Positions 5,982 to 60,185 of a stretch of 64,000 nt of DNA are shown here, one piece after another. Under the pieces are notes generated by a model. That model was not told the DNA's origin, did no database searches, and saw only the letters and a list, made by a program, of their open reading frames with translations. How positions within the stretch are numbered: position 1 is the stretch's first letter; the number at the start of each line of letters is the position of its first letter. The position numbers and the translations under genes are program-made. The stretch comes from Spinacia oleracea (Eukaryota > Streptophyta > Magnoliopsida > Caryophyllales > Amaranthaceae), in assembly GCF_020520425.1 (NCBI RefSeq), contig NC_079490.1, positions 57,390,517 through 57,454,516 on the forward strand. Reading direction: 5' to 3'.

Positions 5982-6113
5982 TGCATTTCCTAATTCCTTT
6001 GTCGCTCGATGCTTGCTCTTGAACATAAGGTAAGAGATGTCATCCTTATTATGTCCAGAGGTGTTTCTCGGTTTCAGAGTTCAACTTATCAAATAAACAG
6101 ATAATCATAGCCT

Positions 6114-6338
6114 ATGATTCATCTGAGCACGGCCATGCATTTTACAGTTTCTAGCTCTCCGAGTGGACTTGTACAAATTTTCAGCATCTCATCCCAATTT
6201 AAGGGAGGACAATCCCAATCTTGCGATCTTGAGATTAGACTTCGTTTGATAGGCGATTACCTGAGCGTTGCCTTTATAGCCTCCTTTTACGGTGCGACGT
6301 TTGGTCAACGTCAAAGTAAGCAGTTCTCAAACAAGTAA
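6114..6338 (+). other. Conserved ORF antisense to Copia-1a 3' UTR (74 codons)
   Basis: A 74-codon frame beginning MIHLSTAMHF lies antisense to the element between the coding region and the polypurine tract. Frames of the same length or almost so occur at the same place in Copia-1b (35735-35965, minus) and Copia-1c (48514-48738, plus), with a shared core VAFIASFYGAT. The protein resembles no family I recognise. The ORF may simply be preserved because the copies are closely related. Confidence 0.3.
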
Positions 6339-6399
6339 TCTCAAATCACTCAGGTATTGAGGATTTAGTGTCTAATAATTTTAATGAAATTTACTTATG

Positions 6400-13340: not shown

Positions 13341-13355
13341 GGCTCGTGATACCAC
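13341..13355 (-). other. Primer binding site of Copia-1a
   Basis: The minus strand reads GTGGTATCACGAGCC directly after the LTR. This is the initiator tRNA-Met primer site with one extra C compared with the usual TGGTATCAGAGCC; the same variant is found in Copia-1b and Copia-1c. Confidence 0.85.
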
Positions 13356-28453: not shown

Positions 28454-28468
28454 GTGGTATCACGAGCC
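28454..28468 (+). other. Primer binding site of Copia-1b
   Basis: GTGGTATCACGAGCC directly abuts the LTR; an initiator tRNA-Met site with an extra C, identical in Copia-1a and Copia-1c. Confidence 0.88.
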
Positions 28469-31287: not shown

Positions 31288-34200
31288 ATGGCAAACAACA
31301 ATTCATTCAACATTCGATCAATTCTCGAAAAGGAGAAGTTGAGCGGGAAAAACTTCCTTGACTGGCAAAGGAACTTGCAAATAGTTCTTATGCAGGAAGA
31401 AAAGGAGTATGTCCTAGAAGAGGCGATGCCCGAAGCCGCAGGCGACGGGGTCACTCAGGCAGCCCTCAATCGTTGGATTGATGCCAACAAGGATGTGAAA
31501 TGTCTAATGCTCGCCACCATGAGTGCAGATCTGCAGAAAACGTTCATCAACTCAGATGCTTTCACAATCATCAATGAGTTGAAGAACATGTTCCAAGATC
31601 TGGCTCGAGTCGAAAGATTCGAGACTCATAGGCAAATTCTTGAGACCAAGCTTAAGAAAGGCGAGCCCGTAAGTCCACATGTTCTCAAAATGATTGGACT
31701 CATTGAGAATATGATTCGGCTGGATCAGCAATTTTCTCAGGAAATGGCTATAGACACCATCCTCCATTCTCTTCATAGCGGGTATGATCAGTTCAAACTG
31801 AACTACAGTATGAATAGTCTGGACAAAACGCTCACTGAGCTTCACGGTATGCTGAAGACCGCTGAAAAGACGCTCAAAAGTGATAAGCAGGATGTGCTTA
31901 TGGTGCGTGGGGGCAAGTTCAAGAAATCTGGAAAGAAGAGGAATGCTAAGAAAGGTGGCAACAAGGCCAGCCCAACTAAGCAAACTGGCGCCAAATCTGT
32001 AAAGAGGAAGGTCAGTCAACCCACTTCTGAATCCGAATGCTTCTACTGCAAGAAGAAGGGGCATTGGAAGAGAGATTGCTTGAAGCTAAAGGAAGATCAG
32101 AAGAACGGAACGGTCGTTCCATCTTCAGGTATTTTCGTTATAGACTGTATACTTGCTAATTCAACTTCTTGGGTATTAGATACAGGTTGTGGCTCACACT
32201 TATGTTCCAATCCACAGGGACTAAGAAGAAGTGGAAAGTTAAGCAAGGGTGAAGTCGACCTACGAGTGGGAAATGGAGCACGAATTGCTGCATTAGCTGT
32301 AGGAACTTATTATTTGTCGTTGCCCTCCGGGCTAGTTTTGGAACTGGAAGAGTGTTTCCATGTTCCAAGTCTTACTAAAAACATCATTTCAGTTTCTTGC
32401 TTAGATGCTAAGGGATTTTCCTTTTTTAATAAAAGACAATAGTTGTTCGTTTTATTTTAAAGAGATGTTTTATGGATCTGCTAGATTAGTCAATGGACTT
32501 TATTTATTAGATCACGACAAACAAGTATATAACATAAATACCAAAAAGGCCAAAAAGGATGATTCAGATCTCACCTATCTGTGGCATTGTCGATTAGGCC
32601 ATATAAACTTGAAACGCTTAGAAAGACTTCAAAAGGAAGGAATTCTAGAACCATTTGACTTAGAGGATTATGGTAAATGCGAATCATGTTTACTTGGCAA
32701 AATGACAAAGCAACCTTTCTCTAAAGTTGGAGAAAGGGCAAATGAACTATTGGGTTTAATCCATACAGATGTATGTGGACCAATGAGTACAAATGCTAGA
32801 GGTGGTTTCAGCTACTTTATCACTTTCACTGATGACTTCAGTAGAAATGGTTATGTCTACCTAATGAAGCATAAGTCTGAATCCTTTGACAAATTCAAGG
32901 AATTTCAGAGTGAAGTATAGAATCAATTAGGCAAGAAGATTAAGGCACTGCGGTCTGATAGAGGCGGTGAATATCTGAGCTATGAATTTGATGACCATAT
33001 GAAGGAATGTGGAATTCTATCAGAATTGACTCCTCCAGGAAAACCACAATGGAACGGTGTGTCGGAACGGAGGAACAGAACCTTGCTAGACATGGTCAGG
33101 TCAATGATGGGTCAGGCCAAACTTCCATTAGAATTTTGGGGACATGCACTAAATACAGCTGCACTCACTATAAATAGAGCTCCGTCTAAAGCTGTCGAAA
33201 AGACTCCATATGAATTATGGTTTGGAAAGCCTCCAAATGTGTCTTTTCTTAAGATTTGGGGATGTGAAGTATACGTCAAACGATTAATTTCAGACAAACT
33301 TCATCCAAAATCTGACAAATGTATCCTTGTGGGCTATCCAAAGGAAACAAAGGGGTATTACTTCTACAATACATCTGAGAACAAGGTGTTTGTTGCTCGA
33401 GATGGTGTCTTTTTGGAGAAAGATCACATTTCCAAAATGACAAGTGGGAGAAAAGTAGACCTCGAAGAAATTCGAGTCGAACAACAAACTCTAGAGAATG
33501 CTCAAGATGACATTCAGGATGAAACTCAGAGATCTTTAGAAGAATCTTGTGAGAATCATGGTCAATCTAGAAATGTTACCCCGCGTAGATCGCAAAGATA
33601 TAGATCTCAACCGGAAAGGTACTTAGGTATTTTGACGAACGAGAGCTATGACGTTCTATTACTTGAAAGTGATGAACCTGCGACTTACAAACAAGCTATG
33701 ACGAGCCCTAGCTCCAAGCAATGGCAAGAAGCCATGCAATCTGAATTAGACTCCATGTCTGAAAACCAAGTATGGGATTTGGTCGATTTGCCAGATGGCT
33801 ACCAAGCCATTGGAAGCAAATGGGTTTTCAAACTGAAAAAGGACAAGGATGGGAAACTTGAAGTTTTCAAAGCTAGATTGGTTGCAAAAGGTTACAGGCA
33901 AGTCCACGGTGTGGATTACGATGAAACCTTTTCACCAGTTGCAATGCTAAAGTCTATTCGGATAATGTTAGCAATCGCTGCATATTACGATTACGAAATA
34001 TGGCAGATGGATGTCAAAACTGCTTTCTTAAACGGCGTTTTAACAGAAACTGTGTTTATGACACAGCCTGAAGGTTTTGAGGATCCAAAGAATGCTAAAA
34101 AGGTATGCAAGCTAAAGAAGTCAATCTACGGATTGAAGCAGGCATCCAGGAGCTGGAATATACGTTTTGATGAAGCAGTCAGTGACTTTGGTTTCATCAA

Positions 34201-35254
34201 GAACGCAGACGAATCTTGTGTATACAAGAAGGTCAGTGGGAGCAAAATTGCTTTCCTAGTATTATATGTCGACGACATATTACTTATCAGAAATGACATT
34301 CCTATGTTGAACTCTGTCAAGATTTGGCTTGGAAAATGTTTTTCGATGAAAGATCTAGGAGAAGCACAGTACATATTGGGCATCAAGATTTACAGAGATA
34401 GATCTAAAAGGATGATTGGACTTAGTCAAAGCACTTATATCAATAAGGTGCTTGATAGGTTCAAGATGGCAGACTCCAAGCGAGGCTACCTACCCATGTC
34501 TCATGGAATAACTCTAAGCAAGACTCAGTGCCCAAAAACACTTGATGAGCGTAGACGAATGAATGGGATTCCGTATGCATCATTGATTGGTTCAATAATG
34601 TATGCTATGATATGTACACGCCCGTATGTTGCGTACGCACTCAGTGCTACGAGCAGATACCAGTAAGACCCAGGAGAGGCGCATTGGACTGCTGCCAAGA
34701 ATATTCTGAAGTACCTGAAAAGGCACAAAGATGACTTCCTGGTCTATGGTGGAGATGATGAATTAATTGTTAAAGGCTATACGGATGCAAGTTTCCAAAC
34801 CGACAAAGATGATTTCAGATCACAGTCTGGGTTTGTCTTCTGCCTCAACGGAGGTGCAGTAAGCTGGAAAAGTGCTAAGCAAAGCACCATTGCGGATTCT
34901 ACAACTGAAGCGGAGTACATTGCTGCACATGAAGCAGCAAAGGAAGCTATATGGCTAAGGAAGTTCATAGGTGAACTTGGTGTAGTCCCCTCCATTAAAG
35001 GACCAATAGCCCTGTATTGTGATAATAACGGAGCTATTGCACAGGCAAAGGAGCCTAGACACCACCAGAGAGTCAAGCATGTACTTCGTAGATTTCACCT
35101 TCTACGAGAGTTCGTTGAAAGAAAAGAAGTCGAGATAAACAAGATTGGAACTGATGATAACATATCAGATCCATTGACTAAACCTCTGCCGCAGGCGAAG
35201 CACAACTCGCACACTGCAGCTATGGGAATCAAGCATATTGGAGAATGGCTTTGA
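31288..35254 (+). pseudogene. Copia-1b gag-pol (three disabling lesions)
   Basis: One polyprotein region in Copia order. Gag starts MANNNSFNIRSILEKEKL and has a zinc knuckle CFYCKKKGHWKRDC (about 32038-32079). Protease has WVLDTGCGSH. Integrase has the HHCC part (HCRLGHINLKRL...CESCLLGK), then TDVCGP, SDRGGEY and the SERRNRT region. Reverse transcriptase has KARLVAKGY, WQMDVKTAFLNG and LYVDDILL (about 34260-34286). RNase H has YTDASF, STTEAEY and CDNNGAI, and ends KHIGEWL. Lesions are one extra base in a T-run near 32422, TAG at 32918-32920 in integrase and TAA at 34664-34666 between RT and RNase H. This copy therefore cannot make the whole polyprotein, but it is far better preserved than Copia-1a and Copia-1c. 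In intact relatives the protein makes particles, copies the RNA and integrates the DNA. Confidence 0.95.
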
Positions 35255-36119
35255 TATCCCTGTTTAATGTTTTAAAGTTTTAGAGTTTAAATCTTTGTAA
35301 AACATTATTGGTTAATCATTCACAATAAATGAAAAGAATTCATTTTTCCATTTAATTTGTGGTTTATTAAATGATGAGTCCCTTCAATTTGACGATATAT
35401 TCAAGATAGACTGTCAGGACCAGTCCTGTGACTAAGAAATGTCTATCAAGTGAACTTGAATGTCAAAGGTTGAAAATGGTCCCTAGTCGGAGTTTTCTAT
35501 AAAATTGGACGCATAGAAAACGTTAGACGATTAAAATGCAAGATGACTAGTAGTTCTGTTTCTTGAACTATGTAGACATGGCAATGTCATAATCATTTGC
35601 ATAGATACTTACTTTGGGAAGACTAGTATCGGACAAGACCTATGAAACTTTACTGTAAGAGATGAAAATCTGTCATAAGTAAATTTCATTAAAATTATTA
35701 GACACTAAATCCTCAATACCTGAGTGATTTGAGATTACTTGTTTGAGATCTGGTTGCTTTGACGTTGACCAACCGTCGCACCGTAAAAGGAGGCTATAAA
35801 GGCAACGCTCAGGTAATCACCTATCAAACGAAGTCTAATCCCAAGATCGCAAGATTGGGATTGTCCTCCCATAAATCGGGATGAGATGCTTAAAAGTTGT
35901 ACAAGGCCACTCGGAGAGCTAGAAACTGTGAAATGCATGGCCGTGCTCGGATGAATCATAGGCAATGATTATCTGTTTATTTGATCAGTTGAACTCTGAA
36001 ACCGAGGAACACCTCTGGACATAATAAGGATGACAACTCTTACCTTATGTTCAAGAGCAAGCATCGAGCGACAAAGGAATTAGGAAATGCACACTTGTCC
36101 CTAAGGACAAGTGGGAGAC
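35255..36119 (+). other. Copia-1b 3' UTR with polypurine tract
   Basis: Non-coding on the sense strand. It carries a conserved antisense frame (35735-35965). The final 28 bp contain the hairpin CACTTGTCC (36092-36100) / GGACAAGTG (36105-36113) and the purine run leading to the LTR at 36120. It matches 5954-6720 and 48354-49100 in inverse orientation. Confidence 0.85.
35735..35965 (-). other. Antisense ORF in Copia-1b 3' UTR
   Basis: The frame starts MPMIHPSTAMHF and has the core DYLSVAFIASFYGATVGQR. It is the counterpart of frames at 6114-6338 and 48514-48738. It overlaps no sense gene. No family recognised; coding is unproven. Confidence 0.3.
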
Positions 36120-37481
36120 TGAAGGAAATAATGCCCTTGGTCCAAATATGCATTCTATGTTAAGTCTAGTAAGTGCGGTTCAGTATTAATTAACAAGTTA
36201 ATAATTCAGTGAGATCAAGTGAGCTGAATGCCTAGCTAGAGGCCGCTTCAGTTCAAGTGGAATTAATTATATTAATCCACAGCTTACTCTTGACTGAATC
36301 CGTAGGGTCACACAAATAGTACGTAAACGGATCAAGTATTTAATGGCATTAAATACTCCATCTATGGATATTCGGAATCGACGGATCTTGGTTTCCGTGG
36401 GAGCTGAGATCGTCACAGGCAAGAAATGAATACTCCGGAAACGATGATATTGCCGGAAACGGAAATATGGATCGTATCGGAAATATTAATATTATCCAAG
36501 TCGTAGATGTTGCCGGAAACGGAAACATGGTACGTATCGGGAAATATTATCGGAAATGGAAATATTGCCGGAATCGGAAATATTGCTGGAAACGGAAATA
36601 TTGTCAGAATCGGAAATATTATCGGAATCGGAAAATAATTCCGGAAACGGAAATATTAAATATTTGTTCGAAACGGAAATTAATTCTGGAATCGGAAATA
36701 TTAAATGTTGTTCGTATCGGAAATGAATTACGGAATCGGGAATTTAATCGGAAGCGTATCGTACGAATTAGCATCGGACGAGGCCCGCTAGACGAAGGCC
36801 CAGCACGAAGCCAGGCCATCGCCCAGCGAGCCGCACGCAGCAACGCACGCCTCGACCAGGCCCAGCGCAAGGCCAGGCCCAGCCAAGGGCGCGCGCGTAC
36901 GCAACACCGCACATGGGCTGTGCGCTTGTCGTGGGCCGCAAGGCCTGCGCGGGTGCACGGCTTGTACGGTGCGTGTGCGGGAAATCCTAATCCTATTAGG
37001 ATTCGTGCGAAGATTAAAATCCTAATCCTATTAGATTTGCTTTGTTATTTAGAGTCCTAATAAAGTTCTAATTAACAAATCCACATCCTAGTAGGATTAC
37101 AATTCCTTTTCCATACCTCTATAAATAAGGGCCTAGGGTCATTATTTGCATATACGATTCAAGTATTCAAAGTGATTTTTGAGAACAAAAATTCAGTAAT
37201 ATAATTGCCTACATTAGCCGAAAATTCTAAGTACCTTAAGGGCGATTCTAGTTGGTCAAGCTTAAGGCGGATCCGGACGTGCTGTGGACTATCTACGGAG
37301 GGACGACACTTGGAGTCCTAAAGTCTTGTTCTTGTTCGGTTCGGGCGCAGCTAGGGAGGGCACGCAACAAAGTGTATGCATCTAAACTATGCTAAATGAT
37401 TATGTGTAAATAATATGCTTTCCTGGCTTTATGGTTTTTTCCGCATGATTTATGAATTGTCATATGTATCATAACCTAACA
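36120..37481 (+). mobile_element. Copia-1b 3' LTR
   Basis: Same length and structure as the 5' LTR, with ends TGAAGG and CCTAACA, followed by the CACAG duplication at 37482-37486. The TATA box lies at 37120-37127. Confidence 0.95.
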
Positions 37482-43764: not shown

Positions 43765-44804
43765 TGAAGGAAATATGTCCTTCACCCAAGGTGAATAAAG
43801 TCTAATACCAAGGTTCATATTAATTGCGAACAATTAATTTAGTAAGATCAAGTGATCGGAACAGCTAGTTGGGGCAATGCTTCCGATTAGTGCATTCTAA
43901 TCTATATTAGGCTCACAACTTACTCTTGACTGAACCTATAAGGTCACACCAATGACATGTAACAGATCACCGGATTAAATGAATCGGAAATTCATTTAAT
44001 AGAATTTCGGGAATTAGTTTGGAAAAATGTATTATACGATACGACCTTGCATCAGAATCGTATATTGTATCGCGAATATTAGTAAGCTGGGCGAAAGGAA
44101 TAATCGTATCGTACGACGGTAATTTGTCGTGTACGATACGATAAATAATAGTCGTAAGGCGTTCGTCGCGAATACGAGCCGCAACGGAGCTGCCAGCACG
44201 TCGAGCCAAGCGCGCATGCGCGCAAGGCCCAACAAGCCAGCGAGCTCGCAACGCAGCAAGTAGGCCAGCCGGCCTGGCCACGGCAGTGCGCAGAAAGGCG
44301 CAGCAACACAGCAACGAGCAAAGCAAAGGCCCACGGCCCATGCTGCCCGGCTGCGCTGTGGGCTTCGGCCTGCCGTGTGTGTTGTGCGCATGGGCTGTGC
44401 GTGCGTGTGTGGTGTGTGGCCGGTCAAGGCCTTTGGTCTTGGCCGGTTACACTTAATATAACATTAGGTTATATTATTTTCCACACAACAAAATCAATTT
44501 TTCCAGTAACCTAAACCTAATTCTAAATTACGTTGTTCAGTTTTTCTCTCTACCCAAAAACTGTTCATTCCGAAAAGCAAACTCTCTTGTACGTTGTCTA
44601 AGCTACAATAATCAAGACGGATCTGAACGTACCGGTGAACCAAATAGAGGAACGATAATTGGAGTTCTTTTTTCGTGTTCGTTGATATTATACTCGGGAA
44701 AACACGCTTCAAATGTAAGTATGCTTAATCTGTGGTTTATACATGCTTCCTGGCTTTGGGGATGTTCCGCACATGTTATGTATGTTTAACTGTATTCCCC
44801 TACA
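43765..44804 (+). mobile_element. Copia-2b 5' LTR
   Basis: Starts TGAAGGAAATATGTCCTTCA and ends TATTCCCCTACA. It is inserted in the RNase H region of Tat-p. It is 1040 bp long against 997 bp for the Copia-2a LTR, and has a CGTATCGTACGA-type block (about 44030-44150) and a GC-rich patch (44160-44440). Confidence 0.92.
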
Positions 44805-44819
44805 GTGGTATCATGAGCC
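44805..44819 (+). other. Primer binding site of Copia-2b
   Basis: GTGGTATCATGAGCC directly after the LTR. This is the initiator tRNA-Met site with the same one-base insertion position as in Copia-1 (T instead of C), while Copia-2a has the canonical TGGTATCAGAGCC. Confidence 0.85.
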
Positions 44820-46916
44820 TTATGTATTCAAAGTATTCTTTAGCACGATTTATTGTTTTTGCTGTTGTCGAATTTTTTGAATTTTTATTGTATTTTTCCG
44901 AATTATTATGGAATATTGGATGAATCGTATAATATGTTCTGAATTCAAAAAATTTCGTATTTTCAACTTTTCTGACCCTAATCTGATTGAAAACGATTTT
45001 CTAAGATCAACTCAAGAGAACGGAATTGCTAAAACAGGCCTCGAAGTATGTGTGTTTGGGCGTTTTTGTTAATTTTCGTATTAAAATTAACAAATTCGAA
45101 AGTTTTTCAATTAATTGGTCAACCTAAACTACTCGGAACTGATTGAAATTTTGACACAATGATGTTTGGTATATTTTAAAATTGTGCTAAAACTTTCGGC
45201 CATTTTTGTTTAGTATAAACCTTAATTTTGCTTTCCCCAAATTCGTAAATTTTAGATCGCTAATTGATTTTTTAAATAATTTGGATCTAGAAATTTTGTT
45301 AATTGGGAAAGGGAATATAATTTCATGGAAAGTGGGAGATTTTAAAAATTATTGGATTAAAATTTTTATTAGATTCGTTAATTTTAATCAACACTTAAAC
45401 CAAATTCGTAAAAATCTGAAATTTAAATGTTTAGAACGATTTAAAGTTTTAGATTCGATTATTTAAAAGTTCAAATTTTTGGGTGAAATTGTTCGTTCTT
45501 AAAATTTGAATAAAGTTAGCTTAGATTTGATAAATTTAACAAAATCGGATTGTTGTAAAAATTAAATTAATTAAATCGTAAAGTCGTTATTTTTCGAAAA
45601 TAAAAATTGTTAATTTTGTGAAAAATAACTAAATGCAAATTTGTTCGTGATTTTTTTTTTTTAAATTAGTTGGTCCGTAGGCACGAACCAAAGGCACGAA
45701 CACGGGGGGTGTCTGTGCACGTGTGGCTCGTCGTAGCCATGCGGGCTACCTCACCACTGCCGAGCCACAACAACGCGGGCAGCAGCAAGCGTGTGGCGTG
45801 CCGCGCGCGCTGGGCGAGGAGAGCGAGCAAGGTAGGCATGCCTTGGCTTGCGAGCTGTGAGCAAGCAGGGGCAAGGCTGCCTTGCCTTGCGCGCAGCGTC
45901 GAGCACAACAACAACAACAATACCACATAGCTGCGCAAGGCTGCGGTTTGTGTGCGTGGGGCTTGCGGGGGCATGGGCGCAATGTTCGTGTGCCTAGTAG
46001 GCCACACATCACGAGCATTGCTGGGCTGGGCGCAAGCCTAGCCCGCATTGCACTTGGTCAATTTTTTTGTTTTCGTAGGGCTTGAAAATTTATGTTTGCA
46101 TTAAATTGGCTAACGGGATAATTAATAATTATTTTATTTAACTTGGAGCGGGCCGTGAGTTTAATTTAATATTTAAATATTTAATTATCCGGAATAATTA
46201 TTGGTTTGAGTGGGAGCCGCTGAATGAAATTAAAATAAAATAATTATTTTAATTATTTTCGTAGGTCACATTATTTTAATTAAATTAAATTTTAATTAGA
46301 ATAAATTCTAAGGATTAATAATTTGGAAATTGATTAATCTTTTAGGACGCGTTTATGTGAACGTGAATTTTAAATAATTCACGTAAATACATGCATAATT
46401 ATATGGGTCATTCGTTTTAGGATACGAATGGGTGAATACATAGAATATATATTTTATGTAATGCAGGTACTCCAAGTGACTAGTATGGCCAATCTAGGAT
46501 AGTTAAATACGGTATGCGAACCGTTTTATCTTTGAACGTAAAGTTTTAAATATGGTCTACATACCATTGAAATTTTGATGTAATTTTATTATTTCAAGTA
46601 TTTCTAGTTTAGAACTTTAAGTTAGCATTGAATGAAGATTCAAGACGATGCCAAGCTAACAAGATGGTGAAGAAGATTAGATGCTTCAAGACAAGAGTTT
46701 TGGGCCATACTAGTTCACCAATTTTATTTATGCTTTTATATATTGAATGAATGTATATTATGCATGAATGCGTTGTTTGTATGTTCGATTAGATTTAGTT
46801 CACTAAATAATCGAACCAACATAGAAACAACTAGGTCCAAAGTAATATTGAGTTCAAAAGTTTCCTTCCAAATCAAGCACTTACAAAAATCTAAGGATCT
46901 AACGTAGTAGGTTTAC
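44820..46916 (+). mobile_element. Copia-2b 5' leader, left part
   Basis: AT-rich leader, with a GC-rich island at about 45680-46060, that matches the inverted Copia-2a leader. It is interrupted at 46917 by Copia-1c; the final TTTAC (46912-46916) is the duplicated target. Confidence 0.85.
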
Positions 46917-48353
46917 TGTTAGGTTATGATTCATATGACATTACATAGATCATGCGGAAACAACCATTAACCCAGGACAACATATTATTTACACATAATC
47001 ATATAGCATAATTTAGATGCATACTCTTTGTTGCGTGCCTTCCCTAGCTGCGCCCGAACCGAACAAGAACAAGTCTTTAGGACTCCAAGTGTCGTCCCTC
47101 CGTAGATAGTCCACAGCACGTCCGGATCCGCCTTAAGATTGACCAACTAGAATCGCCCTTAAGGTACTATTATTTTCGGCACTTTATAGGCAAATGTGTG
47201 ACTGAATTTTTCTCTCAAAACTCACTTTGAATACTTTGAAACTCGTTATAAATTGTGAACCCAGGCCACATATTTATAGGGGTATGGAAAGGGAATTGGA
47301 ATCCTATTCAGATACAAATTAATTAAACCTAGAATTCTACAAGAACTCTAATTTAATTAATTTATCAATTAGAATTAGGAATTTAATCATTAACCGAACT
47401 CTGCATGTTTTAGGAAACGTGCACGAACACAAACACTTGCACACACACGCACGGCAGCCACGATGGGCTCCAATGCGTGCGCGCGAGAAGCAGCCCACGC
47501 AGCGCCCGCGCGCGCTGCGCGCTGCGCGTGCTTGCGCGCGCTGTGCGTGCTGTGCGTGCTGCGCGCGCTGTGCGCGCTGCGCAGCCTGCTGGGCCTGGCC
47601 TTGCGCTGGGCCTGGCGTGGCTTGTTTGTGCGGCGCGCTTGGCTTGCTGGGCGATGGCCTGGCTTCGTGCTGGGCCTCGTCCGGCAGGCCTCGTCCGATG
47701 CTTATTCGTACGATGCGCTTTCGATTAAATTTTCCGATTCCGGAATTCATTTCCGATACGAACAATATTTAATATTTCCGATTCCGGAATTAATTTCCGT
47801 TTCGAACAAATATTTAATATTTCCTTTTCCGGAATTATTTTCCGATTCCGGTAATATTTCCGATTCTGACAATATTTCCGTTTCCGGCAATATTTCCGAT
47901 TCTGGCAATATTTCCATTTCCGATAATATTTTCCGATACGTACCATGTTTCCGTTTCCGGCAACATCTACGACTTGGATAATATTTATATTTCCGATGCG
48001 ATCCATATTTCCGTTTCCGGCAATATCATCGTTTCCGGAGTATTCATTTCTTGCCTGTGACGATCTTAGCTCCCACTGAAACCAAGATCCGTCGGTTCCG
48101 AATATTCATAGATGGAGTATTTAATGCCATTAAATACTTGATCCGTTTACGTACTATTTGTGTGACCCTACGGGTTCAGTCAAGAGTAAGCTGTGGATTA
48201 ATATCATTAATTCCACTTGAACTGAAGCGGCCTCTAGCTAGGCATTCAGCTCACTTGATCTCACTGAATTATTAACTTGTTAATTAATACTGAACCGCAT
48301 TTATTAGACTTAACATAGAATGCATACTTGGACCAAGGGCATTATTTCCTTCA
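46917..48353 (-). mobile_element. Copia-1c 3' LTR
   Basis: 1437 bp, with ends TGTTAGGTT (left) and ATTTCCTTCA (right) in plus coordinates. It contains the Copia-1 repeat array (about 47745-48040), a GC-rich patch (47440-47700) and the inverted TATA box (47271-47278). Confidence 0.93.
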
Positions 48354-48381
48354 GTCTCCCACTTGTCCTTAGGGACAAGTG
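48354..48381 (-). promoter_or_regulatory. Polypurine tract with hairpin (Copia-1c)
   Basis: Same 9-bp inverted repeat CACTTGTCC/GGACAAGTG (48360-48368 and 48373-48381) and purine run as in Copia-1a and Copia-1b, next to the 3' LTR. Confidence 0.7.
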
Positions 48382-48513
48382 TGCATTTCCTAATTCCTTT
48401 GTCGCTCGATGCTTGCTCTTGAACATAAGGTAAGAGTTGTCATCCTTATTATGTCCAGAGGTGTTCCTCGGTTTCAGAGTTCAACTGATCAAATAAACAG
48501 ATAATCATAGCCT

Positions 48514-48738
48514 ATGATTCATCCGAGCACGGCCATGCATTTCACAGTTTCTAGCTCTCCGAGTGGCCTTGTACAACTTTTAAGCATCTCATCCCGATTT
48601 ATGGGAGGACAATCCCAATCTTGCGATCTTGAGATTAGACTTCGTTTGATAGGTGATTACCTGAGCGTTGCCTTTATAGCCTCCTTTTACGGTGCGACGG
48701 TTGGTCAACGTCAAAGCAACCAGTTCTCAAACAAGTAA
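48514..48738 (+). other. Antisense ORF in Copia-1c 3' UTR (74 codons)
   Basis: The frame begins MIHPSTAMHF and runs to QFSNK, nearly identical in length and sequence to those in Copia-1a and Copia-1b. It survives intact in an element whose sense genes are ruined. No similarity recognised. Confidence 0.3.
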
Positions 48739-49099
48739 TCTCAAATCACTCAGGTATTGAGGATTTAGTGTCTAATAATTTAATGAAATTTACTTATGAC
48801 AGACTTTCATCTCTTACAGTAAAGTTTCAGAGGTCTTGTCCGATACTAGTCTTCCCAAAGTAAGTATCTATGCAAATGATTATGACATTGCCATGTCCAC
48901 ATAGTTCAAGAAACAGAACTACTAGTCATCTTGCATTCTAGTCGTCTAACGTTTTCTATGCGTCCAATTTTATAGAAAACTCCGACTAGGGACCATTTTC
49001 AACTTTTGACATTCAAGTTCACTTGATAGACATTTCTTAGTCACAGGACTGGTCCTGACAGTCTATCTTGAATATATTGTCAAATTGAAGGGACTCATC

Positions 49100-52000
49100 A
49101 TTTAATACTAAACCAAGATTAAATGGAATATGAAAACACATTTCATATATGATAAATGTTCAACCCCAATGTTTTACAACCATGGGCCTCTAACCCATCT
49201 TTAAAACATTTCATGGAATTCAAAGCTATGTTTGATTTCCAGTGCTACAACGTGAGTGTTGCTTCTCACTTGTTGCATAGGTTTAGTTATCATGCTTTGC
49301 CAATCTTAATATCCTTTTCATCGAATGTTCTTCGAGATATGATGATAAGATCTTTTGAGTTTGTTTATTATGTGATCTAGTCTTTCTTACTTCGATAGTG
49401 GTTCTACGCATTTTGCAATGAAGAATCATCAAGTTAGCAGACATGTGATCCACCCAAGTTCAATGAAGAACTCATTAATATAAACAACTCTGTTTTATTG
49501 CTTCTTAGGCAATAAGTACTTTTACTTCAACTGTTTAGGTTGCTAGTGATGCTTTGTTTGGATTTGCTTATCCAAGCAGTTCACAGATATGTGGAAGACT
49601 TTCCAGCTATATCTTAGAACATATTTAATTTCCCACGCAACAACTCATGGTCTTCAATCCATGTTGCCATTTCAAAACGCGATGCTCTTTAGCTCGTCCT
49701 TGTCAATGGTTAACTCCAAAGGGTCTTGCTTGATCCTTTGCCAGTGTTTATGCGTGTAGCATCAATATTTAGCATATCTTTATTTCCTTGAATCAAGAAC
49801 TATTCCTATGTACCTTTTCAAGTACCATAAGTATTCTTGATCTCAATCTAGTTGATCTTTACTTAGATCAATAGAGATTGGTATATGTTCGTCATGCCTA
49901 AAGTCATACGATACGTTTTTGGCGATCCTCATATTATATCATACATGATAAATTCTTTTGCAGAATATTTCCCAATTGAATTCTATTCATGTAACTTTAG
50001 CTTATCTAGTTTCAGTAGATACTAAATTCAGCTAAATTCTTTGACATATAATATAGGTTAAGAATCTCATTTAGACTCTTTGATGTTTAACTTAGTAAAT
50101 GCTTATACATAGTTCAAACATCCTTTACTTAGATTTATTCACATGGGTCGAATATCTCCAATGGAGACTTTCGTGTTTGATTTAGTAAATGCCATTACTT
50201 AATCCAAAATAATATCATAAGATCTTTGTAAATAGATCTTAATACCCAGTATGTACTAAGTTTCGCCATGGTCCATTATTGATGAATAATTTCAAACCTA
50301 AGTCATTAGCATTTGAATGTTATTTCACAATAGAGAGATATGTGTGATACACATAGGACCAAATAAGTTTTATGTACTCCCACTAAACTTCTTATATATG
50401 TATAAGAATCATGTACATTTTATGAAACTAAAATACTTATTAGCTTCACTAAAATACATTTCCAATTCCCAATTGCTTGCTTAAATCTGTACTTAGATTT
50501 TATAAGCTAGCTTTCCTTTTCAAGCATTTATTTGGATCCACAAACTCTATGACATACCATGTACATATTGTATTCCATCATTTGATTGAGGAATACGTTT
50601 TGTCATCCAATTGCCATATGTACCAATATGCAATCATTGCTTGAATTATAGACTTAAGCATTACGATTTTGCATGAGGTTTCAACACAATCCATGCCATG
50701 AATTTGCTTGTAACCTTTAGCAACTAATGTAGCTTTGTGTGTGAACACAATTCCATGTTTGATGGTTTTTATCCTTAAAACAAACTTGCAACCAATAGGT
50801 GTGAAACTATTCTTGCAAATCAACAAAATTTCAATTTTGTCATCAAAACATTGAGTATGTTTTATGGCCTCTAACCATTTAAAACATTTGAGTCTATATA
50901 TGGCCTCTAACCATTTTAGGGAATCTGAGTTTCGTCATAGCTTTCTTACAAGTCACAAACTCATTAATCTACATGATAATAGTTTGACTGCAAGTTGTAG
51001 GTTTCTTCACTGATTAATAGAAGAATCTCATAGTTTCATTGACCTGATCTCTATGTTTCTTCACTATCTAATAGAAGAATCTCATAGTTTCAGTGACTTG
51101 AATTCTATGCCTACTTGGGTATAGAACATCAAACAATAGAATATCAATAGCCACTTGAAAGTCCTTTGAATATTCTGTTCTCCTTGAAGCACTTGTAAAG
51201 TCTTCTAAGAGATATCTATTCTTTAAAGCCACTTCTAAAGTCCTTAAAGAATAAGTTCGGATTTTCTGAAGCACTTCGAAAAGCCTCCGGAATGTCCGTT
51301 TATGTTTGTTGTTCGCCTCGAAAGTTTTCGAGGTCTATTTTCTCCCACTTGTCATTTTGGAAACGAATCTCCAAAAGGACATTATTTCGAGCAAACAAAC
51401 ATTATGTTCTCAAAAATTCGTGGTAGAAACAATACCCTTGTGTTTCATTTGAATAAATCACAATGAAACATATATCTATACTTGGGCCTTAGTTTGTTGA
51501 ATAACAAACAGTAAGCTCCCACTGAGTTTAGGAAGTATTTAGATATATTATGAAAAGATATTCTGAAATTACTTTTCAATAGCTTTGACGAATTTGGTTT
51601 AGTTTGGTGGTAGTTGAGCATTTTGTTTTAGAAATTATAGGAAAAGTCTTTATGATTCATCATTGATCGAATCAAGTACTAATTGACTTCGATCATTCCA
51701 ACGTAGATATGCCATATCTTATGGACCTAGATTGTGAAATTATAACACACAATCATTGATGATCATATTTGGTCTCAAGTAATCATCAACATGATCTAAC
51801 CTAGATCTTTATGATTTCTTGCCAAGTGGATTTTATACTTCTGAATCTTTGAACTAGCCAAACAGATTCAAACTTATATCAAATTGAGTAAATAAACCTA
51901 TATTCACTCAAATCTGTGTGAAATAATAAAGTCATAAAATCTTTCTTTAGCTTTGAACTCTATTGTCTAGGCGTTCTAACAATAGTTCATATCTTTTGTT

Positions 52001-53200
52001 ACTTTCAACAAGTAAGACTAGCTGTCTTAAAATGATCTAGAAATCAATCAACTTTCAAAAGTCCATCAAAATAGAGCTTATGAATGTTAACTTGTTGATA
52101 TGGTCTAAGCAACAATGCCAAAGATTAGTGGAACTCAAATCAAAGGATTGATTTGAACCTAGTAAAGTTCTTTAAAGAGTTGTTTGTTTTAATCAAGCAT
52201 ATTGACTCAACCTGTAATTGACCATTTCATTCAAATAAACAAACAAACATTGTTTTTGTTTTTCTTGAATGTGAGTCTTTCTGTGTTTGAAAACAGAAAT
52301 TTAGGTATGTTGATTATGGAACAAAATAGCCATTAAGTTCCAGCCTTTGAAAGGACTTAAAACAAACTTAGATGACCCTACAATTAATGTAGCATTGCCA
52401 TGCTTCATTTCCCACTTGTAGGTCATTAGTGTATCCTAGCTTCCATTGTTTGAGTTATTACCGAAGTAAGAACCTCAAGCGGTATATGATACCAAGGAAG
52501 TTTGATTGCTAGGTCACTTCTCTTTAAACATAAACTTATAGGTAGAAACGGAATCGTAAATTCCTTTCATTTGTTCCTCGTTTTCCTATTTCTTGTACCT
52601 TTTCTTATAGGCTTAAGAATTAAATTCTTTAGTGTTGACTTTTATACTTTGTTAGACATGTCCAATGTCACCAACAAGGTTCTTTACCATTTTAATTTAT
52701 GTTGAATATTTTGTTTCAACTAGATGATCTTACCAGAAGCTTCTAAAGTTCTCTAAGCATCGATCTATTCGAATGTCTAGGGACTAGACTCATTCGAGAA
52801 TTAAATGGACAAAGATATTAGGTTGTTAACCATTGGTAAAGCTGAGCGTATTAAACTCAATGCTTCATGATTTCAAAACTACAGTGTATTTTGAATTCAC
52901 AAGCACCAATTGGTTTGCCATTCGATTTTGATATTCGAAAACAACCATAAAAGTCGATATAAGAAACGTACATTTTAAATTGCTCACTTTCTCTCTTTTC
53001 CGTGAATCGTTCTTGGATTCACTACCAATCGAGAAAATTTACTGTTACCTTTCTAAAAGGATTTACTGCAGTGCAAGATATTTAATTATAAACAATAATT
53101 AAAACATACATTGAAGCATGCAAAGTCTAAACATTTATCATGAATAATAACTTGAAAATAAAAGCAATCATGCAATTTAAACAAGTCATTAGCATTTTAT
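49100..53200 (-). pseudogene. Copia-1c decayed gag-pol region
   Basis: Colinear with the decayed region of Copia-1a (for example TGATCTTACCAGAAGCTTC near 10328 and 52724). The RT relic (50578-50826) and the post-integrase relic (about 51310-51360) are the recognisable parts. The size, about 4.1 kb, equals the gag-pol of Copia-1b. No frame encodes a domain of useful length. Confidence 0.78.
50578..50826 (-). pseudogene. Reverse transcriptase relic in Copia-1c
   Basis: Reads FVLRIKTIKHG...LVAKGYKQIHG...MLKSI...WQLDDKT. It shares with Copia-1a the odd CVETSCKIV and DDKT segments, where Copia-1b has YDETFSPVA and DVKT. There is no YVDD motif. Confidence 0.8.
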
Positions 53201-55897
53201 TCGAATTATGTGTTCCGGCAGGTGTGAATAAAATGATTCCAAGATCCTAAAATCATTGAAGAACTAAGCACAGTTTGTCGACTTAATCCTAAAACATCTT
53301 AGGTAAGCAAAAGCCTTTTGCTAATAGTCTAGAAACTATTCTTGGTTGATAGGTACGTCTAAGAACTTATTAGGTAAACCTATCGATTTTGCCACGACAT
53401 AAAAGGACTCCTTACTTATATCGTTGAGTTTCACCAAAACTAACATGTACTCACAATTATTTGTGTACCTTGCCCCTTTAGGACCAACAAGTAACACCTC
53501 GCTGAGCGAAAACTATTACTAGATTGATGTAAAGGATATCCAAGCAAGTGTATATTTTGGCATGGCACCTTTTAACTCAATTTTTAAGTTTGGAACTTAA
53601 GGCTCTTACTATGTTGGTTAGATTTTAAGTGAACTAAAATCCTTAATCATGCAACATAATCAAGCTTTTGATCTCATGCATTTTAAGACATATTTAAAAG
53701 CAATAAATAACTTATAACATGCATAAGATATTTGTGATCTAGTATGGCCCGACTTCATCTTGAAGCTTTAACTTCAAAGTCCGTCTTGAAAATCTCCGTG
53801 GGAGGCACCATTTTCTTCAAATAGGATAAGCTATAACTAATTACAACTATTTGATGGTACGCAGACCATATTTGAATTGAAAAACAACTTTGGTACTTTA
53901 GACCAATTACATTCAAATTAATGGTACGCAGACCATATTTTCTATCCTATTTGGGCCATACTAGTCACTTCATAACCTGCAAAACAGTACATATACAATA
54001 TATACCATTCACCCATTCATTATCATGAATGGCCCACATAGCTGGTTAGTAAAACACATTATGCATCACGTAAACATTTGCAGCAATTAATCAAGGGCAC
54101 CAATAATCTACCAATTATTCAGTCCTTATTAATTCTAATCAAGTTGTTTTAACCTTAAGGATTTGTAGACCTAATCAAGAGTTTATGACTAAAAAGCGCT
54201 CCCACTTAAACCAATAAATTTATATGCTTTACTAATTTTAAACATAAAAATGTATTTCTAGTCCAACCGGAAACATACAAATTTAATTAAAATTTAAAGC
54301 TCATATCAATTTATAATTGAATCCAAAAAATTTAATTTAATTTCAGTCGTATTTAAATTAATTCATGATTTTAATTTTAGTAAAATAATTAGAATAAATA
54401 AAATTTATTATAATTATAATATTCAAAATTAAAATCCAAGAAAATAATTTAAATTATTAATTTTAAAATTAATTAAAATTACGTGAACTGAAATTTTCAA
54501 ATTAAACATTCAAAACGATCTAATCGTAACGCAAACACCCTACGCATTGCACGCCCATGGGCCGCACGCACACAGCCATTGCTGGCCATGTGCGCGCAGC
54601 CCATGCGCTCGTCGCATAGCTGCTGCATCCCCATCGCAAGCCTCCGCACGCATTGGTGCTCGCTGCGCGCGCCAGCGCTCATCGCACGCGAGCTATCGCT
54701 CGCAGTGCGCGCGCGACATCGCTCGCTGGGCGCGCGACATCGCTCGCTGGGCGCGCGACATCGCTCGCTGGGCGCGCGAGCCATCGCTCGCTGGGCGCGC
54801 GACATCGCTCGCTGGGCGGGCGACATCGCTCGCTGTGCGCGCGAGTAATGCTGGGCGCAGCGCTCGTGGCACGCGAGCTTGCGCTCGCTGCGCGCGAGGC
54901 TGCGCGCTCTTGTGCGAGGCAGCGCGCGTTGTGGCGCAGCTCGCTTGCTGCCCACACGCGACTGCCTTGGCTCGCCCTTCGCCCATGCCCATTCGTTCAT
55001 TGCTCGTGGCACACGACACAAGGCAGGGCTGCTGCCTTGTGCTCGTGCACTACGCCCTTGCTCATTGCATTCGTGCCGCACGGGCGACGAGCTCCCTTGC
55101 TCGTCGTCGCATGCCCGCATTATACAACACCCCTTAAGGGTAACACGAAGCGTCCATTGCTTCGTGCGTGCAAGTTTTATGAACGAATCGCATAAAATTT
55201 AAAATTTATATTTAAAATTAATGACAAATTAATAAATAATATTAATTTCATAATTTTAGGGCGAAAAATCGAAAATTTATTATCCAATTGATTTTCGATT
55301 GTTATGGATTCAAGTCTAGGTCATAAAAATTTAAAATTTATCATAAATTTACAATTTTTATAGTGGTTTTTAATCATAGGTTTCTAATTAAATTATAATT
55401 AATTATGAAAATCAAATTAATTCTAAATTATTCTAATTTTCAACAAATTAATCATAATTACAAATTAGATTGCATAATTAACAAGACTAGGCATTCAAAC
55501 TTGTTAAACATATGCAGTAGGTCAATCAAAAATTCAAGATTTATCAACAAGAATCGCAAATATTTAACTTAACATCTTAAATTTACGAAATTTTGCATTC
55601 GAAAAACTAAAACCTTCGAAAAGTCATAGTTAGGCTTCGAATTTGAGAATTCTGGGTTCGGCAGAAAAAAATTATTTTTGTCAAAATTTTAGAATGCCTT
55701 TTACATGCGGAATTGACACAAAAATCACTCAATTCGGATGAGTAACGAAGAAACTGCCGAAAAACTGCGTACGTATAATTAAATAAACGCAATTTGCAAT
55801 TAATTAACAATTACGAAAATTAATCACCCCTTTTAATTCTTGCAAATTTGTAATATTTAACCATGTTCATGCAATTTAGATTATGAAAATAATAAGG
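53201..55897 (-). other. Copia-1c 5' leader with GC-rich island
   Basis: Inverse of the Copia-1b leader, well conserved at both ends. The GC-rich island (about 54500-55147) carries a six-copy 21-bp tandem array. Confidence 0.8.
54707..54845. repeat. Six-copy 21-bp array (GCGCGACATCGCTCGCTGG)
   Basis: CATCGCTCGCTG recurs at 54718, 54739, 54760, 54782, 54803 and 54824, a 21-bp period with one 22-bp step. The period keeps a reading frame, so long Arg/Ala/Ser-type frames appear on both strands. The array is absent in Copia-1a. Confidence 0.9.
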
Positions 55898-55912
55898 GGC
55901 TCGTGATACCAC
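55898..55912 (-). other. Primer binding site of Copia-1c
   Basis: The minus strand reads GTGGTATCACGAGCC, identical to those of Copia-1a and Copia-1b. Confidence 0.88.
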
Positions 55913-57340
55913 TGTTAGGTTATGATTCATATGACATTACATAGATCATGCGGAAACAACCATTAACCCAGGACAACATATTATTTACACATAATCATAT
56001 AGCATAATTTAGATGCATACTCTTTGTTGCGTGCCTTCCCTAGCTGCGCCCGAACCGAACAAGAACAAGTCTTTAGGACTCCAAGTGTCGTCCCTCCGTA
56101 GATAGTCCACAGCACGTCCGGATCCGCCTTAAGATTGACCAACTAGAATCGCCCTTAAGGTACTATTATTTTCGGCACTTTATAGGCAAATGTGTGACTG
56201 AATTTTTCTCTCAAAACTCACTTTGAATACTTTGAAACTCGTTATAAATTGTGAACCCAGGCCACATATTTATAGGGGTATGGAAAGGGAATTGGAATCC
56301 TATTCAGATACAAATTAATTAAACCTAGAATTCTACAAGAACTCTAATTTAATTAATTTATCAATTAGAATTAGGAATTTAATCATTAACCGAACTCTGC
56401 ATGTTTTAGGAAACGTGCACGAACACAAACACTTGCACACACACGCACGGCAGCCACGATGGGCTCCAATGCGTGCGCGCGAGCAGCAGCCCACGCAGCG
56501 CCCGCGCGCGCTGCGCGCTGCGCGTGCTTGCGCGCGCTGTGCGTGCTGCGCGCGCTGTGCGCGCTGCGCAGCCTGCTGGGCCTGGCCTTGCGCTGGGCCT
56601 GGCGTGGCTTGTTTGTGCGGCGCGCTTGGCTTGCTGGGCGATGGCCTGGCTTCGTGCTGGGCCTCGTCCGGCAGGCCTCGTCCGATGCTTATTCGTACGA
56701 TGCGCTTCCGATTAAATTTTCCGATTCCGGAATTCATTTCCGATACGAACAATATTTAATATTTCCGATTCCGGAATTAATTTCCGTTTCGAACAAATAT
56801 TTAATATTTCCGTTTCCGGAATTATTTTCCGATTCCGGTAATATTTCCGATTCTGACAATATTTCCGTTTCCGGCAATATTTCCGATTCTGGCAATATTT
56901 CCATTTCCGATAATATTTTCCGATACGTACCATGTTTCCGTTTCCGGCAACATCTACGACTTGGATAATATTTATATTTCCGATGCGATCCATATTTCCG
57001 TTTCCGGCAATATCATCGTTTCCGGAGTATTCATTTCTTGCCTGTGACGATCTTAGCTCCCACTGAAACCAAGATCCGTCGGTTCCGAATATTCATAGAT
57101 GGAGTATTTAATGCCATTAAATACTTGATCCGTTTACGTACTATTTGTGTGACCCTACGGGTTCAGTCAAGAGTAAGCTGTGGATTAATATCATTAATTC
57201 CACTTGAACTGAAGCGGCCTCTAGCTAGGCATTCAGCTCACTTGATCTCACTGAATTATTAACTTGTTAATTAATACTGAACCGCATTTATTAGACTTAA
57301 CATAGAATGCATACTTGGACCAAGGGCATTATTTCCTTCA
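55913..57340 (-). mobile_element. Copia-1c 5' LTR
   Basis: 1428 bp, almost identical to the left LTR; the 9-bp difference is one GTGCGTGCT-type unit in the GC-rich patch. TATA box inverted at 56267-56274. It ends at the TTTAC duplication. Confidence 0.93.
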
Positions 57341-57345
57341 TTTAC

Positions 57346-57735
57346 GCCAAAGCGAGGTGCTATATTAGTTGACTTAGATGGTAAAGCGTCCCAAAGGAAC
57401 ACGTTGATTGTGGTTTCAACTCAAACAACAATGACATTATGTTCTGGCAATGGAATAAATTATGGTATTAATTTATTAACCAAGAGTAATTTGGAGATTA
57501 CTAGCAATAGGTTTTTCTTACCTAGAATCTTATAATACTTAAGACATGCAAAAGCTGCTTAAGGATTTAAGACATTTAGGGTCTTGGAATCGTTTCATTC
57601 ATTTTTGGACCTGTTTTTGCTTTTGCATGAATGAAATGTTTAATAGCTTTAATGATTGCATGCTAGCATTTATTTTAAAGTTATTAAGTTATGAATGGTT
57701 ATTCATTGCAAATTCTTTTCAAATGTAGTAATCAA
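57346..57735 (+). mobile_element. Copia-2b leader, right part
   Basis: Resumes the leader interrupted by Copia-1c and leads into gag at 57736. It matches Copia-2a (2640-2960) in inverse orientation. Confidence 0.8.
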
Positions 57736-58668
57736 ATGGCCGCAAACATAACAACAATCAAATCATCGAAAATTCTGGATGTCGAGTTAAAGTTGACTAA
57801 CTTTCTTGAATGGGAAAGGAAAATTATCGAAGTTTTAAAAGTTAACGACATGCACTATGTCATTGAACAACCTTTTCCTAGCTATAATGCGCAGGGTATG
57901 GCTCCAGAAAGGTACAGAAATTGGGCACTTCACAAGTACCTTGTCACGGAGTTTATCCTAAAATCTATTCCGAAAATTGGAGGGGGAGGTTCATCACTTT
58001 TGAGCCTCATGCTCTCCTAAGTCGACTTGGGGATAGATGTCGTGTGGGGTTTCAACCCAAGGGCCAAACTGGTGGCAACAGGGTAGATGAATTGGCTAAT
58101 TCAATGAGCAATCTCAAACTCATTACCCTACACAGGTCGTGTCTAGAGAACGAGCTTCTAGAGGCACAAAAGCGCATTTACTCAACTAAGATGGACAGAA
58201 ACACACCAATTCGGTCTCATGTGAATATGATGTCTGGATTATTTTTCACAATTGAGAGACTTGGTGGTTCCGTCAAAGAGTCAATAGTTATTGCACTGGT
58301 GCTGAATTCTCTTTATAGGGATTACGAGGGGTTTAAGATAAACTATCTCTTTAATTAGAAAGAGAGCACATTATGTGAACTTGTTGAATTGCTCGAGAAA
58401 TTCGAGAGAATCCTTAAGTTCAAGCAAGATCCTTTGAATGTGAGGTGCACTAAATTCAAGAAAGTGTGCAAGGGGAAGAAAAGCAAGGCTGCATCTTCAT
58501 CCACTCCCGGAGGGCAACTGGCGCCTTCTAAGAGCAAGATGAGGAAAAATGCTTCTCCTTCAACATCATAATGCTTCAATTGTAATAAAATTGGTCATTA
58601 CAAGCGAAATTTCCCTAAACTAAAGGAAGAGAAGAAGGACGGAAACATTGCTTCTCCTTCAGGGATGT
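57736..58668 (+). pseudogene. Copia-2b gag remnant
   Basis: The frame starts MAANITTIKSSKILDVELKL, like Copia Gag. It runs through LTNFLEWERKI and VNDMHYVIEQPFP, then shifts frame near 57950. It continues with LHRSCLENELLEAQKRIY, RSHVNMMSGLFFTIERLGG and a lysine-rich stretch, with stops at about 58356 and 58569. A zinc knuckle remnant CFNCNKIGHYKRNF lacks the last cysteine. It is cut by an Athila-like LTR at 58669. The protein would have formed the particle shell. Confidence 0.82.
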
Positions 58669-60048
58669 TGATATGTGTGTTTTATATAGATTTTTACCCC
58701 TGTCCCTTAGTACTTTTATGCATCAAATGAGCTCTTAGGAGCCTTTTTTAGTACTAATGTGTGTTATTGAGTGTGCCTTGAGTTTCAGGTTTGATTAGTG
58801 ATAAATTGGTCTTTTTAGACCCGTTTCATGGTGATTTAGGCCACTACACGAGCCCGAGGAAGTTCGGGATCATTATCGTCGACTTTCGGGAGCCTTAGAT
58901 GCTTATGGTTGGGCCCCGGGAGTTAGACTCGGTGATATGGGTGAAGGACGTTGATGATTGCAAATCGCTCTGTGAGCTGAGGGGGAAACGCGAAGATCGG
59001 GCGAAAAGAAAAGGGAATTAAAGTCTTCTGTGCGCGCCCGATCGGGCGCACTTCGCCCGGTCCGGATCGGGCGGCCATCTGGGAGCTGCTGTAAGCCTTT
59101 CGCAAACCGCCCGATCGGAGGGAATTTGGCTCGATCGGGCCGACTATCGAGCACATCCCCCGATCGGGCGACGCCAACCTCTGATGCTTATGCGCGTGTT
59201 ATATTTCCGATTTTTGGGCTTTATTTTTGGAAAACTATATATACTAGCCTTTGTTATTTTTAGAGATACATTATTTTCTAATATTGAAGAGTTAGATTAT
59301 TTTCCTTACCTTATTATTCTCTCTAATTTGTTCAAACACTTAGTTTTTATTTCCAATAAAAAATTCAAGCTTTATTATTTCGTTGTCCTTCAATTAGGTA
59401 TTGTTCTTTACTTTAATTTAATTTATCGCTTTAATCATGTTTTCCATTATATTATTCGCTTTGTTATTTGTTATCATGAGTGAGTAGTTTAATTTCTAGG
59501 GTTCAGGGGATCCATGAATGCATGATTGGGATTATATGTGGGCATGATTATTGATTGATTGATGATAATTTCTATAGCTTATTATTATTGCTCGTCAATT
59601 CTGTTAGGCCGGACTAATTTGATTTGAGTTTGAGTAACCTTAGATTATGCGCCGAGAGGTATAAATCTGATGTTTTTGATCTGTGGCTATTAGATAGGAA
59701 TTGTAATTAGTACATAGCGAGAGCCTGCTAGTTATAATTGCCTAAGGAATTCATAGGATTCGAGAGCCTGATTGTTAATTGATTGTTGTTGTCCGTTGTC
59801 CAATCCCGGTCTGCATTTGTGGTGAACCGCTTCCCTAGATTCCTTTATCATTGATATTTTCTATTTTAATTATTGCATTAGTTTAATCTACAAACCAATT
59901 CAAACCCTTTTGATACCAATAGTCTAGATTAGTTAATAAGTAATAGAAAGAACATTGTTTCCCTGTGGATTCGATCCTGACTTCCCTTTGCTACCTAGCT
60001 AGTGAACTTAAATTATTTTTGATTAGGTGATACGACTTTAGCGTATCA
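58669..60048 (+). mobile_element. Athila-like 5' LTR
   Basis: Starts TGATATGTGTGTTTTATATAG and ends TTAGCGTATCA. It is followed two bases later by TTTTGGCGCC. It contains a GC-rich patch built from GATCGGGCG words (59035-59175). GATGT (58664-58668) before it may be half of the target duplication. No second LTR is in the window. Confidence 0.82.
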
Positions 60049-60071: not shown

Positions 60072-60185
60072 AACGGTTTTATTTTCTGTTGATGATTGTT
60101 TATTCTAGATTATTGTTTGTTACTACTCAAGGAACCCACGTTCCTTGAGACCGGATCTCACATTTTTTTTGTAGTTTCTTTTTCT

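What the first reader, a model, noticed from the sequence alone, without database searches (positions are those of the whole stretch)
46917..57340. Very recent insertion of a Copia element without usable proteins (trans-mobilisation)
Copia-1c has a perfect TTTAC duplication and LTRs that differ by only about three substitutions and one 9-bp unit, yet its gag-pol zone is thoroughly decayed. That decay cannot have happened after insertion. The element must have been copied by proteins from another element while keeping LTR, primer site, leader and polypurine tract. The decayed ballast, about 4 kb, has been kept at the same length as gag-pol.
Basis: partly seen in the sequence, partly recalled or inferred. 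Interest (0 to 1): 0.75.

Follow-up and report, generated by a model that had tools for sequence, protein, structure and literature searches.

The report
Dead retrotransposon moved by helpers
A plant jumping gene whose own protein genes died long ago nevertheless inserted recently, apparently carried by the proteins of a related element whose ends it resembles; this is a clear new example of a known kind of genetic parasitism.

Summary
Element 1c (46917-57340, minus sense) has a perfect TTTAC duplication, LTRs differing by 3 substitutions in 1428 plus one 9-bp gap, and the PBS and PPT of its relatives; its 4.08-kb core is a collinear, stop-riddled gag-pol relic. The decay predates insertion: 1a (5805-14886) carries the same relic at 94.5%, with 257 shared stop triplets and the same 36-bp duplication, and a protein database holds a cluster of 85 sequences of it. 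So the family multiplied after its proteins died, most likely in trans. In four end segments it is 98% identical to the nearly intact 1b (27092-37481), but in the coding zone they share only patches. With an outgroup the ends group 1b with 1c (22 sites against 2 for 1a with 1c); the core groups 1a with 1c. A second LTR family repeats this: 2L and 2R share LTR and leader, yet 2L carries a core related to 1c's (71-78%) where 2R has gag. So one dead body has been paired with two sets of ends. This resembles wheat RLC_Angela host switching: new in this plant (probably spinach), not a new kind. Genome-wide copies could not be searched.

The parts
46912..46916 (.). target-site duplication TTTAC, low-coordinate copy
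   Evidence: empty-site paralogue
57341..57345 (.). target-site duplication TTTAC, high-coordinate copy
55913..57340 (-). 1c 5' LTR, 1428 bp, TG...CA
46917..48353 (-). 1c 3' LTR, 1437 bp; 3 substitutions and a 9-bp gap against the 5' LTR
55899..55912 (-). 1c primer binding site GTGGTATCACGAGC (initiator-Met type; type recalled)
53184..55912 (-). 1c 2.7-kb leader; last 1.3 kb 98% identical to 1b (24 differences in 1307)
49108..53183 (-). 1c core ('ballast'): collinear gag-pol relic, about 100 stops per frame; 94.5% identical to 1a, only patchily similar to 1b
52387..52640 (-). relic of the gag zinc-knuckle / protease stretch (72% to 1b 32014-32293 over 242 aligned bases); protease named from a recalled motif
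50452..50964 (-). RT relic with a 36-bp duplication that 1a and some database clusters share
48354..49107 (-). 1c 3' untranslated region ending in PPT AAGTGGGAGAC; 10 differences from 1b in 752
27092..37481 (+). 1b: full-length coding relative, TSD CACAG, LTRs 21 substitutions in 1362
31288..35254 (+). 1b gag-pol zone: Pfam matches to gag, zinc knuckle, GAG-pre-integrase, SH3 and RVT_2 (rve below cut-off; last piece 34667-35251 no match); broken by one frame change near 32405-32442 and stops at 32918-32920 and 34664-34666
5805..14886 (-). 1a: second copy of the dead element; its 3' LTR is interrupted at 5804/5805 by 2L
1711..5804 (-). 2L: non-coding member of a second LTR family; LTR from 5804, PBS near 4806, core below 2637 homologous to the 1c core
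43765..46916 (+). 2R, upstream part: LTR and leader of the second family, into which 1c inserted
57346..58690 (+). 2R, downstream part: end of leader and decayed gag

Best explanation
1c is a recent insertion of a non-autonomous Ty1/Copia LTR retrotransposon family whose gag-pol died before 1a and 1c separated. Its RNA is made from its own LTR promoter, packaged and reverse-transcribed by Gag-Pol of coding Copia-1 elements, of which 1b is a slightly damaged copy, and integrated by their integrase. It can use those proteins because its U3, PBS, leader, 3' region and PPT are nearly those of the coding partner. That match is kept by recombination, most simply template switching between two RNAs in one particle, with switches just outside the coding zone. 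Shown: recent insertion, ancestral decay, multiplication, mosaic structure. Inferred: trans-supply of proteins and template switching as the exchange route.
Against: No helper with an intact gag-pol is in the window: 1b has three lesions and older LTRs than 1c. The pol search listed no Spinacia protein among its best 120 of 7971, best identities 54-71%; it could not return proteins longer than about 1017 aa. 1c is not uniformly like 1b: the last 470 bp of the LTR are 84% alike, the early leader 90-98% by window, and the GC-rich parts of LTR and leader vary more. Sites private to 1c in the four end segments (34 of 3403) are no fewer than those private to 1b (31), so outside the LTRs they only bound the age. 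No expression, particle or new-insertion data. Only three family-1 and two family-2 elements were available as DNA.
Confidence: 0.86

Rival explanations
1. 1c is old; its gag-pol decayed in place and its two LTRs look alike only because gene conversion homogenised them.
For: LTR-LTR conversion is known in general (recalled); the TSD is only 5 bp; sites private to 1c in the end segments (34 of 3403) allow an age above that given by the LTRs.
Against: Those 1.0% private sites still leave no room for decay of the core in place, and the decay is shared with 1a, an independent insertion.
Confidence: 0.04
2. 1c inserted as a coding element and its core was replaced afterwards by gene conversion from a dead copy.
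For: 1a and 1b lie in the same 64 kb; the homologous ends could anchor a conversion tract.
Against: 1a has the same core with the same boundaries, so the arrangement exists without 1c; a 4-kb replacement would have to fall within the short time allowed by the LTRs.
Confidence: 0.05
3. The ends of the 1b and 1c lineages were exchanged by gene conversion between chromosomal copies and not by template switching in particles.
For: Ectopic conversion gives the same mosaic; the wheat paper names both routes (PMC9744471, section 17).
Against: Exchange on both sides of the core fits two switches in one reverse-transcription round simply; ONSEN recombines often during bursts (PMC5668417, listing and passages). 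The 2% difference between 1b and 1c ends (69 of 3403) speaks against conversion of 1c by 1b itself since insertion, not against older conversion. Not excluded.
Confidence: 0.2
4. The core is captured foreign DNA or a functional non-coding module and not a gag-pol relic.
For: The gag part is barely recognisable, no integrase core relic was found, and the core is conserved across two LTR families.
Against: Collinear remnants of the knuckle/protease stretch, SH3 region, RT and RNase H end in the right order. Differences between 1a and 1c in the RT relic fall evenly on codon positions, 9, 10 and 11.
Confidence: 0.06

Closest known systems
Non-autonomous RLC_Angela sub-populations of wheat (PMC9744471; passages, sections 11 and 17 read)
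   Same: Copia elements of about full size with a thoroughly degenerate coding region; LTR tree and interior tree disagree; the authors suggest host switches by gene conversion or template switching.
   Different: The wheat non-autonomous elements are stated to be over 85% identical to autonomous ones; here the cores are only patchily alike while tested end segments are 98% alike, and the shared part includes leader and 3' region. Membership in the Angela lineage was not tested.
Soybean SNRE/SARE LTR swapping (Du et al. 2010; not held, known from citations in PMC5668417 and PMC3701649 and recall)
   Same: Autonomous and non-autonomous partners re-paired by exchange of terminal sequences (title of the cited paper).
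   Different: Recalled as Gypsy elements; details could not be checked.
Dasheng / RIRE2 of rice (PMC9033089, passage)
   Same: Defective element with ends like those of a complete helper.
   Different: RIRE2 is Gypsy (passage); Dasheng is recalled as lacking a coding relic.
LARD, large retrotransposon derivative (definition in PMC9033089, passage)
   Same: Internal sequence over 4 kb, non-coding or reminiscent of retrotransposon domains, needs functions in trans.
   Different: 1c is nearer to a degenerate full-size copy than to a featureless LARD (my recall of typical LARDs).
RLG_Cereba / RLG_Quinta of einkorn (PMC11302176, passages)
   Same: Autonomous and non-autonomous pair recognised by shared LTR parts, PBS and PPT.
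   Different: Gypsy-type names; Quinta still encodes GAG, 1c encodes nothing usable.
BARE-2 of barley (described in PMC9744471 section 17)
   Same: Parasite of a Copia helper.
   Different: Only gag is disrupted in BARE-2.

Membership tests
Ty1/Copia LTR retrotransposon | LTRs TG...CA, 5-bp TSD, PBS and PPT | tested here: met
Ty1/Copia LTR retrotransposon | gag-pol with integrase region before RT | tested here: met
   1b: gag, GAG-pre-integrase, rve below its cut-off, SH3, then RVT_2. 1c relic: SH3 region before RT; an integrase core relic was not found
LARD (broad definition) | internal region longer than 4 kb without usable proteins | tested here: met
   interior 48354-55912; stops
LARD (broad definition) | multiplied although non-coding | tested here: met
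   two copies in the window; 85-member protein cluster of the relic
LARD (broad definition) | trans-mobilisation shown by experiment | not testable with these tools
   inferred only
Autonomous/non-autonomous pair with exchanged ends (wheat RLC_Angela type) | ends and interior give conflicting groupings | tested here: met
Autonomous/non-autonomous pair with exchanged ends (wheat RLC_Angela type) | paired activity in time across many copies | not tested
   The genome search did not complete
Angela lineage of Copia | RT phylogeny with Angela references | not tested
   no reference sequences at hand; suggested only by PMC6337768 (Angela over 70% of full-length spinach Copia; passages)

The most novel reading that the evidence does not exclude
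The traffic of ends runs from parasite to helper: the dead lineage (1a, 1c) has descended whole, ends and core together, and the coding element 1b wears ends taken from it. Support: since parting from 1a, the 1c lineage has about the same branch length in its ends (22 changes shared with 1b plus 6 private, of 1603 polarised LTR and leader sites, 1.7%) as in the first kilobase of its core (17 of 904, 1.9%) (sites where the outgroup matches neither state left aside). Undivided descent predicts this; capture of ends from the helper would make it a coincidence. A stable dead body would then be a reservoir of the cis-acting ends.
Probability: 0.25. Interest if true: 0.65.

Novelty: new member of a known kind. 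Interest (0 to 1): 0.42.

Why it matters
It is an unusually legible case of retrotransposon parasitism: within 64 kb lie dead and coding members of two LTR families, and the dead members share a body while each shares its ends with a coding member. It allows a direct genome-wide test of how non-autonomous elements stay matched to their helpers, and in which direction the cis-acting ends move. It also warns that LTR-based and core-based family assignment can disagree in this genome.

Tried and rejected
Own-genome search for further copies: the genome search with the 1c LTR was sent unchanged twelve times and never answered. A PBS-leader pattern gave 0 matches in viral contigs and 0 in genome contigs, collections not meant for plant genomes. 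A model in which neutral relics diverge from 1b faster than constrained ends was rejected: 1a and 1c differ about equally in the core (224 of 4048, 5.5%) and in four end segments (189 of 3403, 5.6%), so the core is not evolving fast, yet 1b and 1c differ by 2% in those segments (69 of 3403) and hardly align in the core. Selection on the RT relic: pN/pS 0.65 from 28 differences, differences even over codon positions, read as no support for selection. The idea that 1a has a truncated LTR was dropped: 2L sits in it (its TSD lies outside the window). Tryptophans of P0121 at places where 1a and 1c have stops (TGA, or TAA in 1c at the third) are read as TGA under another code; this is inference. Left out of the counts: the LTR beyond its first 640 bp and the GC-rich part of the leader (1c 54501-55199). 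One search used only columns where 2L and 2R agree; of 67 sites where 1a differs from 1b and 1c, 18 matched neither state.

Full report
Observation. Element 1c occupies 46917-57340 and reads on the minus strand, with 5' LTR 57340-55913 and 3' LTR 48353-46917. Its LTRs differ by 3 substitutions in 1428 aligned columns and one 9-bp gap in a GC-rich repeat. At substitution rates that I recall for plants (7e-9 to 1.3e-8 per site and year) this is 0.08-0.15 My. The flanks carry TTTAC on both sides. The insertion interrupts another Copia relic (2R) in its leader, and the related relic 2L shows the uninterrupted site once. PBS and PPT are those of 1a and 1b. Gag of 1b is 94% identical to a Spinacia oleracea protein over 73% of the query, so the genome is probably spinach.

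The core is dead and was dead before insertion. Between 53183 and 49108 the sense strand has 94-105 stops per frame and no open stretch above 118 aa. Remnants are collinear with 1b gag-pol: a knuckle/protease stretch, an SH3-region and RT stretches at about 39% amino-acid identity, and the RNase H end at 44% over 25 aa; no integrase core relic was found. Element 1a, a separate insertion, has the same core at 94.5% over 4048 aligned bases with 24 indel runs; 257 stop triplets (any frame) are shared, 37 are only in 1c and 45 only in 1a. A 36-bp duplication in the RT relic is in both and not in 1b. A search with the 144-aa open piece of the 1a relic found 42 proteins; the first, P0121, is a cluster of 85 sequences at 93% identity, and P0122-P0128 hold 13 more at 67-93%. 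Of these eight, P0121, P0122 and P0125 show both copies of the duplicated motif, P0123, P0124 and P0126 one, P0127 and P0128 none; only cluster representatives were seen. These are short contigs of unnamed source, so the count is of sequences and not of genomic copies. The family multiplied with a broken RT, and trans-supply of proteins follows as an inference.

Mosaic structure. 1c and 1b are 97-99% identical by window in the last 1.3 kb of the leader and 98-99% from 49107 through the 3' region; the early leader gives 90-98% and its GC-rich part less. Inside the coding zone the windows give 42-69% with many gaps. The boundaries lie about 94 bp before the 1b gag start and about 110 bp after its pol stop, and 1a has the same boundaries. 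In four end segments, 1b and 1c agree against 1a at 151 columns, 1a and 1c against 1b at 31, and 1a and 1b against 1c at 34; in the core the figures are 63, 1516 and 73 (sums). Using agreement of 2L and 2R as outgroup, derived states shared by 1b and 1c number 22, by 1a and 1c 2, by 1a and 1b 6, of 1603 columns (sign test 22 against 2, 3.6e-5). Unequal rates cannot explain this, because 1a and 1c differ as much in the end segments (5.6%) as in the core (5.5%). Against a wholesale match: the last 470 bp of the LTR of 1c are only 84% identical to 1b and 83% to 1a, so the LTR itself has a mixed history.

Mechanism. Most likely two RNAs, one dead and one coding, are packaged together by coding-element Gag; reverse transcriptase switches templates in the homologous leader and 3' region, and the integrase inserts the product. 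Shown: the mosaic, the shared decay, the recent insertion. Inferred: co-packaging, trans-supply, template switching. Conversion between chromosomal copies is the main rival for the exchange step.

Known context. Wheat RLC_Angela contains full-size non-autonomous sub-populations with degenerate coding regions, LTR and interior trees that disagree, and suggested host switches (PMC9744471; passages and sections 11 and 17). Einkorn RLG_Cereba/RLG_Quinta is another pair (PMC11302176, passages). Recombination during bursts is reported for ONSEN (PMC5668417, listing and passages), abnormal template switching for Triticeae complex elements (PMC1950507, abstract), and homogenised non-coding regulatory regions for non-autonomous pararetroviruses (PMC5491270, abstract). 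Soybean LTR swapping (Du et al. 2010) was not held. In the listings of searches (each capped at 8-15 papers) I saw no title or abstract start on such a family in spinach; of the two papers holding all terms, PMC6337768 was read in passages and PMC7840529 only seen in the listing.

Length. Core lengths are 4076 (1c), 4085 (1a) and 4171 bp (1b).

Verdict. A new member of a known kind.

Noticed in passing
5784-5824: 2L begins exactly inside the 3' LTR of 1a after its first 150 bp, so 1a looks interrupted by a nested insertion and not truncated; the rest would lie left of the window.
   Followed up: partly
2-208 and 208-1102 with 15747-16604: A plus-strand Copia RT fragment (72% to 1b over 69 aa) is followed at once by a 0.9-kb repeat that recurs at 15747-16604 (88%).
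   Followed up: no
22970-24703 and 25077-26883: A large inverted repeat with arms 81-87% alike.
   Followed up: no
38203-38574: Tandem repeat of 62-bp units.
   Followed up: no
40776-43798 and 60096-62000: Open frames that look like Gypsy pol and gag next to the second Copia family (recalled from motifs, not scanned).
   Followed up: no
54560-55137 and the middle of the Copia-1 LTRs: GC-rich short repeats that vary strongly among 1a, 1b and 1c, much more than most of the sequence around them.
   Followed up: no
55899-55912, 44806, 4806: The primer site differs by element: TGGTATCAGAGCC in 2L, one extra base in 2R (TGGTATCATGAGCC) and in Copia-1 (TGGTATCACGAGCC).
   Followed up: no
P0121-P0125 against 1a 8082-8579: Database proteins show tryptophan where 1a and 1c have stops, probably plant relics translated under a code reading TGA as tryptophan.
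   Followed up: no
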